From: Acidimicrobiaceae bacterium
GTDB lineage: Bacteria; Actinomycetota; Acidimicrobiia; Acidimicrobiales; RAAP-2
Length of the DNA: 64,000 bases
Direction: 5' to 3'
Assembly (NCBI GenBank): GCA_027314705.1
Contig: DAHVAJ010000068.1
Coordinates: 1-64,000, forward strand
Positions 46,702-49,786 of the stretch are shown here, in pieces (the stretch's first letter is position 1; every line of letters begins with the position of its first letter). A program made the position numbers and the translations under genes. The notes below the pieces were generated by a model that did no database searches, was not told where the DNA came from, and saw only the letters and a program-made list of their open reading frames with translations.

Positions 46702-47484
46702 TCAGTCGACGCGGAAGGCGGCCATGGAGAGCGACCCGGCCAGGTAGCCGTCGACCACCTTCTCGAGCTTCGCGCCCGAGGCGGCGGCGAGCCCGCAGAC
46801 CGGTGCCAGGGGGAGGAAGTGGTCGGGGGTGGGTACGGCCCGGCGGTACTCGGCCCGGTGGGCCAACGTGCCGACGGTGGCCGGGTCGGTGCGGGCGAGC
46901 TCACCGCAGGCCTCGTTGAACCGCACGGCCCAGTCGGCCCCGGCCTCGCCCAGCGAGAAGTCGACGAGCCTCAGGTTGTGGACGACGTTGCCGCTGCCGA
47001 GGACCAGGACCCCCTCCTCTCTCAGGGGTGCGAGGCGGACGCCCAGGTCGAAGTGCTCGTCCCACCCCTCCTGGGCGTTGACCGAGAGTTGGACCACCGG
47101 CACGTCGGCGTCGGGGAAGACGTGTGCGAGCACGCTCCACGTCCCGTGGTCGAGGCCCCAGCCGTCGTGGTCGAGGCCGACCCACCGGGGAGCGAGCGCC
47201 TCCACGACCTCGACCGCCACCTCCGGGGAGCCGGGCGCCGGGTACTGGAGGTCGAAGAGGGCCTGGGGGAAGCCGTAGAAGTCGTGGATGGTCCGGGGCC
47301 GCTCCATGGCGGTCACCAGGGTGGAGCCGACGTACCAGTGGGCCGACACGCAGACGACGGCCCGCGGGGTGGCCGGTAGGGAGGCCCCGAAGGCCCGCCA
47401 CGCCCGCGTGTACCGGTTGTCGGCCAGCGCGTTGCGGGGGTCGCCGTGGCCGAGGAATGCGGCGGGCATGCGGGTGGCGGGCAC
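46702..47484 (-). CDS. LigB-type class III extradiol dioxygenase (DODA-like)
   Basis: 260 residues from a GTG with AGGAGG 5 bases before it. Metal-binding histidines are in FLGHGDPRN, CVSAHWYVG and LDHGTWSVL; further landmarks are PVVQLSVN and VLVLGSGNVVHNLR. This is the 4,5-DOPA/aromatic ring-opening dioxygenase family (YgiD-like), which uses Fe or Zn. The real substrate of bacterial members is mostly unknown. It is a single-gene unit between the ABC transporter and the cytochrome b module. Confidence 0.88.
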   Translation of the reverse strand: MPATRMPAAFLGHGDPRNALADNRYTRAWRAFGASLPATPRAVVCVSAHWYVGSTLVTAMERPRTIHDFYGFPQALFDLQYPAPGSPEVAVEVVEALAPRWVGLDHDGWGLDHGTWSVLAHVFPDADVPVVQLSVNAQEGWDEHFDLGVRLAPLREEGVLVLGSGNVVHNLRLVDFSLGEAGADWAVRFNEACGELARTDPATVGTLAHRAEYRRAVPTPDHFLPLAPVCGLAAASGAKLEKVVDGYLAGSLSMAAFRVD

Positions 47485-47624: not shown

Positions 47625-48665
47625 CTACACCGACGCCGGGACCTTCGGTGGACCGGCCCCTGAACGTGCCCCGGAGGTCCCGGGGGGTCGTTCGACCTCC
47701 CGGTAGTGGTTCCGCCAGATGAGGCGGTAGAGGCGCGTCCACCGGGGGATCGACCGCACCCCGGGGATGAAGGGCACCAGGGCCAGGATGATGGTGAGGA
47801 TGATCATGATGGAGAAGACCTGCAGGTCGGCGTTGGACGAGGTCTTCATGGGCGGCACCTGGTACCAGAGGGTGTACAGCCACAGCCACGCCTGGCCCGG
47901 CCAGTTGCCGGTCTCGTTCATCATCCCCCACTGGTCGCCCGAGAGATGCTGGTGATCGGCCAGGCTGGCCAGGTACTGGCCGTCGGCGATGAAGAGGAGG
48001 GGCTTCGTGTAGTCCGTGCCGTAGAACTGGCGGGAGCTCAACAGTGCGCCGTCGAGGGCTCCGGAGCGGGCCATCGAGGTGAGCCCCGAGACGATCGTCC
48101 CGACCGGACCGTAGTCACCGGCCGGCACCTTGAGGGCGCCGTTCTGCCACGTGGCGTCGGCCACCGCCTTCTCGTAGGCCGCCGTCCAGGCCGCCTGCTG
48201 TGCGGGCGAGGCCGCCCGGTACTCGGACACCGCCGCGCCGACCTGGGGGTCGTTGGGCAGGGTGGCGAGCGGGCCGAGCACGAAGTCGTTGGCCGTGTCG
48301 ATGGGGTGGTGCACGCCGGCCCACTTGGCCGGGGCGAAGAACCCGATGGACTGGGCCGTGCCGTTGGTGTTGTAGGGCGGACCGTAGCTCCCGGTACCAC
48401 TCGTGCCGTCGAGCTCGGTGATGGCCGTCTGGGCGAAGTCGACCGGACTGGCGTTGGACCACGACCTGATGGTGACCGGCTTGTCGTCGGGTGAGGCGAA
48501 GACGACGGCCAGTCCCACCACGAGCAGGATCACCACGAGCAGGGCGATGAGGAACTCCTTCACCAGGTCGTAGGGCACGTAGCGCCCGTGCCACTCGTCG
48601 GCGTCCCGATCCGGCTTGAAGCGGCGGCGCGAGCCGGCCCCGTGAGCGGCGGCGGCGGCGCTCAC
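47625..48665 (-). CDS. Membrane partner of the cytochrome b6-type protein, large extracytoplasmic loop
   Basis: 346 residues from a GTG that overlaps the cytochrome b stop. One membrane helix near residues 37-57 (EFLIALLVVILLVVGLAVVF) is followed by a ~220-residue exported domain, then a W-rich segment (WLWLYTLWYQVPP) and one or two C-terminal helices (VFSIMIILTIILALVPFIPG), ending with a basic tail (RLYRLIWRNHYRE). The position resembles subunit IV of b6f complexes, but the PEWY quinol-site motif is absent and no CxxCH or Rieske cysteines occur. I do not recognise the exported domain. Likely a structural or quinone-interacting subunit of the same complex. Confidence 0.65.
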   Translation of the reverse strand: MSAAAAAHGAGSRRRFKPDRDADEWHGRYVPYDLVKEFLIALLVVILLVVGLAVVFASPDDKPVTIRSWSNASPVDFAQTAITELDGTSGTGSYGPPYNTNGTAQSIGFFAPAKWAGVHHPIDTANDFVLGPLATLPNDPQVGAAVSEYRAASPAQQAAWTAAYEKAVADATWQNGALKVPAGDYGPVGTIVSGLTSMARSGALDGALLSSRQFYGTDYTKPLLFIADGQYLASLADHQHLSGDQWGMMNETGNWPGQAWLWLYTLWYQVPPMKTSSNADLQVFSIMIILTIILALVPFIPGVRSIPRWTRLYRLIWRNHYREVERPPGTSGARSGAGPPKVPASV

Positions 48666-49390
48666 GCCGTCACCTCCCCGGTTGCGGTGGTGGTGACGTC
48701 ATCCCCCGGGGGGCCGTCACCGACGGTCCTGGCCCGGAACGGGGTCACCACGCCGCGCAGCCGGACCAGGAGCACGTGGATGCCGACCAGGACCACCACG
48801 GCCAGGGGCAGCAGCACGATGTGCCACATGAGCATCTGGCCGAAGTTGGTCACGTTGAAGATGGCCCCGACCCCGGTCGAGTTGATGCCGTCCTTGGCCT
48901 GGGTGCTGATCCACTGCGAGTCGAAGTTCTGCTGGGACAGGTACCCGGTGAAGGCGGCCCCGACCGAGACGAGGAAGGTCACCACGCCGGTGATCCAGGT
49001 CGCCGCCCGCCGGCCCCGCCAGGCCGCCATGAAGAACTTCCCCCACAGATGGATGACCATGGCGAAGAAGAAGATCTCCACGCTCCACAGGTGCAGGGAG
49101 TTGACGAACAGGCCGGTCGAGGAGACGTGCCACCAGTTCGGTCCCATGATGGCCAGGAGCATCCCCGTGCCGATCACGACGATGAGCGCCGAGATGGTGG
49201 TGACCCCGAACACGTAGATCCACGAGGCCACGTAGGCCGGTTGGCGGTCGGGAAGGAGCTTCTGGGGGGGGAGGGCGCCGACGGCGGCCGCCCGTACCTT
49301 GGCCGTCCACTGGTCGGCGTCCTCCGGACGGTCGGCGGCCACCCCGGGGTCGGCCGCCGTCGAGTGTGCGGATGGGTCGGTGACGGTCAC
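48662..49390 (-). CDS. Cytochrome b6-type diheme membrane protein
   Basis: 242 residues from a GTG. Four membrane helices. Helix B has SLHLWSVEIFFFAMVIHLWG with His100 and His114, and helix D has WHIVLLPLAVVVLVGIHVL with His190 and His205. The 14/15 spacing matches cytochrome b6 rather than bc1-type cytochrome b (14/14). The GYLLPWDQ-type motif reads GYLSQQNFDSQW. It should hold two b hemes and carry electrons across the membrane to or from quinone. It is the middle gene of three coupled by GTGA overlaps. No Rieske protein or cytochrome c is in the window. Confidence 0.85.
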   Translation of the reverse strand: MTVTDPSAHSTAADPGVAADRPEDADQWTAKVRAAAVGALPPQKLLPDRQPAYVASWIYVFGVTTISALIVVIGTGMLLAIMGPNWWHVSSTGLFVNSLHLWSVEIFFFAMVIHLWGKFFMAAWRGRRAATWITGVVTFLVSVGAAFTGYLSQQNFDSQWISTQAKDGINSTGVGAIFNVTNFGQMLMWHIVLLPLAVVVLVGIHVLLVRLRGVVTPFRARTVGDGPPGDDVTTTATGEVTA

Positions 49391-49575
49391 TGGTCGTCTC
49401 CTCCTCGGTGCGGAAACGGCAGGGCGATCGCCAGGATGAACACGATCGCCATCAGCCCGATGACGATCAGGTTCCCCCAGGAGATCTGGATGAATCCCCA
49501 GTGGACGTAGTGCCCGGGACCACCCAGGTCGACGAGCGCGCCCACCAGGCTTCCGATCATGGCGAGTACTGGCAT
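49387..49575 (-). CDS. Small single-helix membrane protein of the cytochrome b operon
   Basis: 62 residues; ATG preceded by AGGAGGT. Hydrophobic at both ends: MPVLAMIGSLVGALV and a central helix (ISWGNLIVIGLMAIVFILAIAL), ending in HRGGDDQ. The stop overlaps the cytochrome b GTG, so the three genes form one translation unit. It may be a small accessory subunit like the Pet G/L/M-type peptides of b6f, but there is no sequence match to claim. Confidence 0.7.
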   Translation of the reverse strand: MPVLAMIGSLVGALVDLGGPGHYVHWGFIQISWGNLIVIGLMAIVFILAIALPFPHRGGDDQ

Positions 49576-49596
49576 GGTGTTGACCTCCTGCCTGCG

Positions 49597-49602
49597 AGGT
49601 TA
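49597..49602 (-). promoter_or_regulatory. Candidate -10 of the cytochrome b operon
   Basis: TAACCT on the minus strand, 21 bases before the ATG at 49575, with the Shine-Dalgarno in between. Confidence 0.4.
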
Positions 49603-49786
49603 GGGAGGGCCCGTGGGACCCCATAGGGCCGAAAGTCACCGGGCGGGAGGCGGAAGGTCCCGGTCTCCCGTCGGTGGTCCGGTCCGTGCACCCGGTCCCG
49701 CGACCGCCGGGTGCGCGTCCATACTCCCTCCGCCGGCGGGCCGAGGCAACGATGTGCGTGCCGGGAGCGGGCGGGAGCTCCTCCCC

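What the first reader, a model, noticed from the sequence alone, without database searches (positions are those of the whole stretch)
47625..49602. Three-gene cytochrome b6-type module lacking Rieske, cytochrome c and the PEWY motif
A 62-residue helix protein, a four-helix diheme b6-type protein with 14/15 histidine spacing, and a 346-residue partner with a ~220-residue unknown exported domain are joined by GTGA overlaps. The partner lies where subunit IV should be but has no PEWY quinol site, no Rieske cysteines and no CxxCH. This could be a distinct electron-transfer complex between quinone and an external donor or acceptor.
Basis: partly seen in the sequence, partly recalled or inferred. 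Interest (0 to 1): 0.65.

Follow-up and report, generated by a model that had tools for sequence, protein, structure and literature searches.

The report
Dormancy-box cytochrome b6 complex without Rieske
Soil and bog actinobacteria carry a stripped-down relative of the respiratory cytochrome b complex that has lost its usual quinol-oxidising parts, gained an unknown outside domain, and appears to be switched on by the same kind of low-oxygen regulator that controls dormancy in mycobacteria.

Summary
In detail: three overlapping genes encode a 62-aa helix protein, a diheme b6-type cytochrome and a 346-aa partner. None of the three contains a single cysteine. With the insert removed, its ends match a subunit-IV profile (E 1.5e-5; shuffles far lower). 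In 14 loci it is fused to b6. The AlphaFold model of one fusion superposes on mycobacterial QcrB (Z 23.7). PEWY has become PGQAW, helix G is gone, and ~200 exported residues without a PDB match sit between helices E and F. The b6 partner has also lost the LPWxQ Qo motif. The module is widespread (581 relatives in one genome collection).

New here: 46 of 76 module promoters carry a DosR/DevR-type box (GGGACTTTCGGCCC), against 44 of 570 other promoters in the same loci. The window's own promoter has one, and its genome encodes a DevR-like regulator. Every module genome tested (27/27) also encodes canonical QcrB, so the module adds to bc1 rather than replacing it.

Best reading: a hypoxia/NO-regulated, non-bifurcating, menaquinone-linked diheme electron conduit with a rebuilt outer-side pocket. 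The outer-side redox partner and direction of flow are unknown. New variant of a known kind.

The parts
49624..49639 (-). DosR/DevR-type box GTGACTTTCGGCCCTA, 48 nt upstream of the first gene's ATG
   Evidence: one of 5 near matches in the 2.69 Mb genome; same position class (-45 to -90) in many relatives; published DosR motif GGGACTTNNGNCCCT in PMC6448022
49387..49575 (-). 62-aa single-TM protein with conserved HW...NLxVI..PFP signature
   Evidence: orthologue directly upstream of b6 in most loci
48662..49390 (-). diheme cytochrome b6-type protein (4 TM; H100/H114, H190/H205); LPWxQ motif replaced by SQxNFDSQWI
   Evidence: Pfam PF13631 2.8e-13; PDB cytochrome b6 1.1e-6; invariant His; comparison with canonical b6
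47625..48665 (-). derived subunit IV: helix E (res 34-55), exported domain (about 62-250), PEWY replaced by PGQAW (256-260), helix F (279-299), no helix G
   Evidence: AlphaFold pLDDT 85.9; profile match with insert removed E 1.5e-5; fused model vs QcrB Z 23.7
47896..48482 (-). exported, mostly helical insert (about residues 62-256), no Cys, no Pfam, NCBIfam or PDB match; contains invariant QWG and E251 (99%)

Best explanation
The three genes encode a membrane complex of the cytochrome b6/subunit IV kind that has lost the classical Qo machinery: the PEWY glutamate, the LPWxQ motif, the Rieske protein, cytochrome c/f and helix G. It keeps the two transmembrane b hemes and a b6-like cytoplasmic-side motif. 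Instead of a Rieske head, the outer-side pocket is covered by a cysteine-free helical domain inserted between helices E and F. The operon is transcribed from a DosR/DevR-type box, so it should be induced by hypoxia, NO or CO alongside, not instead of, the canonical bcc-aa3 chain. Most likely function: a non-bifurcating, menaquinone-linked electron conduit across the membrane, joining a cytoplasmic-side menaquinone site to a rebuilt outer-side pocket (conserved W246, E251, W260, W262, Y264) whose partner is a quinone or a soluble molecule. Shown by sequence, profile or structure prediction: composition, family, lost motifs, box enrichment, coexistence with QcrB. Inferred: heme binding, induction, the quinone sites, and non-bifurcating electron flow. 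Unknown: the outer-side partner and the direction of flow.
For: b6 identity and invariant heme His. Partner derived from subunit IV: insert-removed profile score 35.3 (E 1.5e-5) versus at most 18.8 in 30 column shuffles and 19.7 reversed; 14 natural b6-partner fusions; fused model pLDDT 89.8, pTM 0.86, superposing on mycobacterial QcrB over model residues 24-514, Z 23.7, 286 residues, 3.1 A; intermediate L129/L130 with GPWYL and the b6 Cys. Qo motifs replaced and no Cys in any subunit. Insert on the outer side: acidic loop before a basic C-terminal end. Box: 46/76 module promoters versus 44/570 other promoters in the same loci at >=11/13 matches, Fisher p 2e-25; USP (4/5) and DevS-like kinase (2/5) promoters are also enriched, ctaA and ctaB 0/16 each. 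DevR-like regulator 70% identical to that of L050 in the own genome, beside two boxes, USP and PPOX genes. Coexistence with canonical QcrB in 27/27 module genomes versus 13/53 without.
Against: No direct evidence of heme, quinone binding, induction or electron transfer. The box statistics come from related genomes. 30 of 76 module promoters lack a good box, and in the more distant, mostly fused lineages enrichment is weak (5 of 25 at >=11, about 0.9 expected). Presence of the regulator in module genomes (42/52 versus 179/343) is confounded with phylogeny. No electron-transfer partner gene is conserved next to the module. The window's own box has one mismatch to the published stringent motif.
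Confidence: 0.5

Rival explanations
1. A normal bc-type complex that borrows the Rieske protein QcrA from the genome's canonical bcc operon and runs a Q cycle.
For: b6 and subunit-IV ancestry; a Rieske gene exists elsewhere in the genome (L157).
Against: Both Qo motifs are gone; the insert occupies the outer-side loop between E and F where the Rieske head would work; the canonical QcrCAB is intact; no Rieske near the module in 87 loci apart from two unrelated fusions.
Confidence: 0.08
2. An electron donor or assembly factor for heme A synthesis or cytochrome oxidase biogenesis.
For: In 30 of 80 loci the module lies next to ctaA, with divergent ctaB and a TlpA-like thioredoxin beyond.
Against: That synteny is limited to one set of related loci; other loci, including the window's, have different neighbours. 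ctaA and ctaB promoters have no box (0/16 each) whereas the module has its own.
Confidence: 0.12
3. A p-side donor:menaquinone oxidoreductase, or superoxide/NO scavenger, that generates membrane potential by moving electrons inwards.
For: Inward bL to bH flow would be electrogenic (established knowledge); DosR-type control suggests a role under hypoxia or NO.
Against: No cofactor-bearing p-side protein is conserved nearby; no fully conserved His and no Cys in the exported domain.
Confidence: 0.2
4. A redox sensor or signalling device of the menaquinone pool rather than an enzyme.
For: Regulator genes are frequent neighbours in several families (G214, G334, G285 and G244 have the regulator within about 5 kb).
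Against: No conserved signalling domain in the module; neighbours vary while the three-gene module is constant; the regulator is better explained as controlling the module through its box.
Confidence: 0.1

Closest known systems
Cytochrome b6 + subunit IV (PetB/PetD, split cytochrome b of b6f and Firmicutes-type bc complexes)
   Same: Split b6 (four helices, His spacing 14/15) plus helices E and F; superposes on complete cytochrome b
   Different: No PEWY, no LPWxQ, no Rieske, no cytochrome c/f, no helix G, no heme-ci Cys, ~200-residue exported insert
Actinobacterial QcrB of the bcc-aa3 supercomplex
   Same: Best structural match; present in the same genomes
   Different: QcrB is one chain with QcrA/QcrC partners; the module has neither and coexists with it
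ExtP, b-type cytochrome of selenite/tellurite reduction operons (NF040969)
   Same: Best NCBIfam match of the b6 protein; a b6-type cytochrome outside a bc1 or b6f operon
   Different: 48.6 bits against a cut-off of 290; no selenite/tellurite operon genes seen nearby
DosR/DevR (OsdR) dormancy regulon
   Same: Palindromic box, NarL-type regulator, GAF sensor kinase, USP, PPOX and GNAT neighbours as in M. tuberculosis and S. coelicolor
   Different: No b6-type complex found among the regulon members in the papers looked at

Membership tests
cytochrome b/b6 N-terminal family | Pfam cytochrome b N-terminal domain over cut-off | tested here: met
   PF13631 50.6 bits, cut-off 27
cytochrome b/b6 N-terminal family | two His pairs in helices B and D, b6-type spacing 14/15 | tested here: met
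   H100/H114 and H190/H205 invariant
subunit IV / cytochrome b C-terminal half | sequence-profile relationship | tested here: met
   E 1.5e-5 after removing the insert; shuffles at most 18.8 vs 35.3; with the insert in place only a short helix-E match
subunit IV / cytochrome b C-terminal half | helices E and F in cytochrome b positions | tested here: met
   fused model aligned to QcrB through residue 514
subunit IV / cytochrome b C-terminal half | PEWY (or PxWY) motif | tested here: not met
   PGQAW in place; GPWYL only in divergent L129/L130
subunit IV / cytochrome b C-terminal half | third helix G | tested here: not met
   only short helices after F in the model
subunit IV / cytochrome b C-terminal half | Pfam PF00032 match | tested here: not met
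   no PF00032 match among 29 members and none in the own genome
bc1/b6f complex | Rieske subunit in the operon | tested here: not met
   no Cys in any subunit; no conserved Rieske within about 10 kb in 87 loci
bc1/b6f complex | cytochrome c1/f or equivalent | tested here: not met
   no CxxCH in the module; no conserved c-type cytochrome nearby
bc1/b6f complex | bifurcating quinol oxidation | not testable with these tools
   needs biochemistry
ExtP (NF040969) | equivalog score cut-off 290 bits | tested here: not met
   48.6 bits
DosR/DevR-type regulon | box upstream of the operon | tested here: met
   window box with one mismatch to the stringent motif; 46/76 relatives at >=11/13
DosR/DevR-type regulon | DevR-like regulator in the genome | tested here: met
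   E 3.7e-94, 70% identity to the L050 regulator, G000:C20
DosR/DevR-type regulon | binding and induction by hypoxia/NO | not testable with these tools
   needs EMSA and expression data

The most novel reading that the evidence does not exclude
A quinol-reactive cytochrome b in which the Qo site has been rebuilt from scratch: the nearly invariant glutamate of the exported domain (E251) and the family's own SQxNFDSQWI and PGQAWLWLY motifs replace PEWY, LPWxQ and the Rieske head, giving a dormancy-induced, non-bifurcating quinone enzyme.
Probability: 0.3. Interest if true: 0.8.

Novelty: new variant of a known kind. Interest (0 to 1): 0.6.

Why it matters
Cytochrome b is normally tied to a Rieske protein because quinol oxidation must be split at Qo. 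A family found in hundreds of genomes that keeps the diheme core but drops every Qo element, and seems to be controlled by the dormancy regulator, would show what else a cytochrome b core can do. It would also name a concrete candidate for how uncultured acid-soil, peat and freshwater actinobacteria remodel respiration when oxygen runs out.

Tried and rejected
PDB sequence search of the partner, alone and as a profile: no relative. Pfam on 29 members: one stray MGH1-like hit in one member, judged chance. Foldseek against PDB and BFVD with the partner model: no significant match; no claim of a new fold is made, because the insert was not folded alone. hhalign of the full partner against subunit IV gives only a short helix-E match (E 0.0023); the insert had to be removed first. 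Considered: replacement of bc1 (rejected, QcrB in 27/27 module genomes), association with cytochrome bd (9/27 module genomes versus 21/53) or NiFe hydrogenase (few true hits in module genomes) - none seen. Heme or metal site in the exported domain: no Cys and no fully conserved His. Literature searches found no description of the family; subscription papers are not covered.

Full report
OBSERVATION. The three ORFs lie at the stated coordinates, joined by GTGA overlaps, and a codon-based gene caller selects them. The middle protein is a b6-type cytochrome: Pfam PF13631 2.8e-13, cytochrome b6 in the PDB at 1.1e-6, with H100/H114 and H190/H205 invariant among 29 sequences. No subunit contains a cysteine, so there is no Rieske centre, no CxxCH and no heme-ci thioether.

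DISTRIBUTION. 52 of 395 genomes of the class carry the partner and 11 of 396 sampled across the phylum (own class included). The GTDB contig scan confirmed 581 related stretches; the best 80 come mainly from MAGs named as Acidimicrobiaceae/Acidimicrobiales, 'Actinomycetes' or Solirubrobacterales, many with sample names pointing to bog, palsa, fen or lake sites. The order small TM - b6 - partner is kept while the surroundings change.

WHAT THE PARTNER IS. Its ends read like subunit IV: PYDLVKEF..FASPD around helix E, and PGQAWLWLYTxWYQVPP..PFIPGxRSIPRW around helix F. With the ~185-residue insert removed, hhalign against 30 actinobacterial cytochrome-b C-terminal halves gives E 1.5e-5, score 35.3; 30 column shuffles reach at most 18.8 and the reversed profile 19.7. 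The alignment puts NETGNWPGQAWLWL on NxTPxxxKAPWYFL, the PEWY position. The choice of what to remove was made by eye, so two further lines matter. First, 14 loci have b6 and partner as one full ORF. Second, the AlphaFold model of one such fusion (pLDDT 89.8, pTM 0.86) superposes on mycobacterial QcrB with Z 23.7 over 286 residues from model residue 24 to 514. Two divergent loci (L129, L130) look like intermediates: their b6 keeps YWYCMGG, like the b6 cysteine region, and their partner has GPWYL where canonical proteins have PEWY or APWY.

WHAT HAS CHANGED. Canonical GYLLPWDQ in b6 is GYLSQQNFDSQW here and the A-B loop is short. PEWY is PGQAW. Helix G is missing. The insert is acidic (9 K+R, 18 D+E) and the C-terminal end basic (9 K+R, 2 D+E), so by the positive-inside rule the insert is exported. 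It has no Cys; the best-conserved His (H240) is at 92%; E251 is at 99% and W246, W260, W262, Y264 at 99-100%. It matches nothing in the PDB by sequence or fold, with the caveat that it was not folded alone.

REGULATION. The promoter of the window's operon has GTGACTTTCGGCCCTA 48 nt before the first ATG. The published stringent DosR motif is GGGACTTNNGNCCCT (PMC6448022); the OsdR consensus of S. coelicolor is AGGGCCGATCGGCCCT (PMC5069765). Scored as matches to GGGACTTTNGKCCC, 46 of 76 module promoters reach 11 of 13, against 44 of 570 other promoters in the same loci (Fisher p 2e-25); shuffles predict about 2.4 of 79. Of the other promoters, those of USP genes (4/5) and a DevS-like GAF kinase (2/5) are enriched, as expected for a dormancy regulon; ctaA and ctaB are not (0/16 each). 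A NarL/DevR-type regulator is next to the module in many loci, within about 5 kb in genomes of families f3, f16 and f23. In G475 (L154) the module sits among genes that read as alcohol dehydrogenase, pyruvate phosphate dikinase and USPs, resembling the OsdR island (by inspection). In the window's genome the regulator (70% identical to L050's) lies beside two boxes, USP and PPOX genes on contig C20. In the more distant, mostly fused lineages the box signal is weaker.

CONTEXT. In 30 loci ctaA, ctaB and a TlpA-like gene lie upstream. This is a local synteny and is not shared by the window. No Rieske or c-type cytochrome is conserved within about 10 kb of 87 loci. All 27 module genomes in the order sample encode canonical QcrB above its cut-off, against 13 of 53 genomes known to lack the module. 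The window's genome has QcrCAB and CtaD/E on contig C46. The module therefore supplements bc1-aa3.

MECHANISM. Inference from established cytochrome b chemistry: two b hemes make a wire across the membrane; the b6-like VRxxGVVxPF end of helix D suggests a cytoplasmic-side quinone contact; without Rieske and Qo motifs, bifurcation is unlikely. The simplest function is a non-bifurcating menaquinone-linked conduit with a rebuilt outer pocket, used when oxygen is short. Direction and outer partner are open. Outward flow would dissipate membrane potential; inward flow would build it.

LITERATURE. No description of the family was found in open papers.

Noticed in passing
L129:2543-4386, L130:1951-3794: Divergent three-gene relatives (b6 with YWYCMGG, partner with GPWYL, different small TM gene placed downstream); likely evolutionary intermediates to canonical b6/subunit IV.
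   Followed up: partly
L027, L028, L113-L124: Natural fusions of b6 and partner into one ORF of about 540-690 aa.
   Followed up: yes
L150 (G000:C20:33500-53400): Apparent DevR-type regulon island of this genome: regulator, USP, PPOX, GNAT-like gene and two boxes.
   Followed up: partly
L069, L072, L106, L107: MAGs titled Acidobacteria share the ctaA/ctaB/SerS/module synteny of Acidimicrobiales loci; their names are probably wrong.
   Followed up: no
L155, L156 (genome G481): A distant genome of the phylum has two copies of the module; the copy in L156 has PGAWW in place of PGQAW and neighbours unlike those of the other loci.
   Followed up: partly
L164-L193: Most canonical actinobacterial subunit IV proteins here read KAPWYF rather than PEWY, so the Qo glutamate is absent from the usual position in this phylum too.
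   Followed up: no
window 46702-47469: LigB-type dioxygenase-like gene downstream of the module; a similar gene follows it in a few relatives (L034, L039, L048, L091).
   Followed up: no
L045:7943-8521 (cluster 34): 192-aa protein without Pfam match whose promoter has the box in 4 of 5 loci; candidate new regulon member.
   Followed up: no
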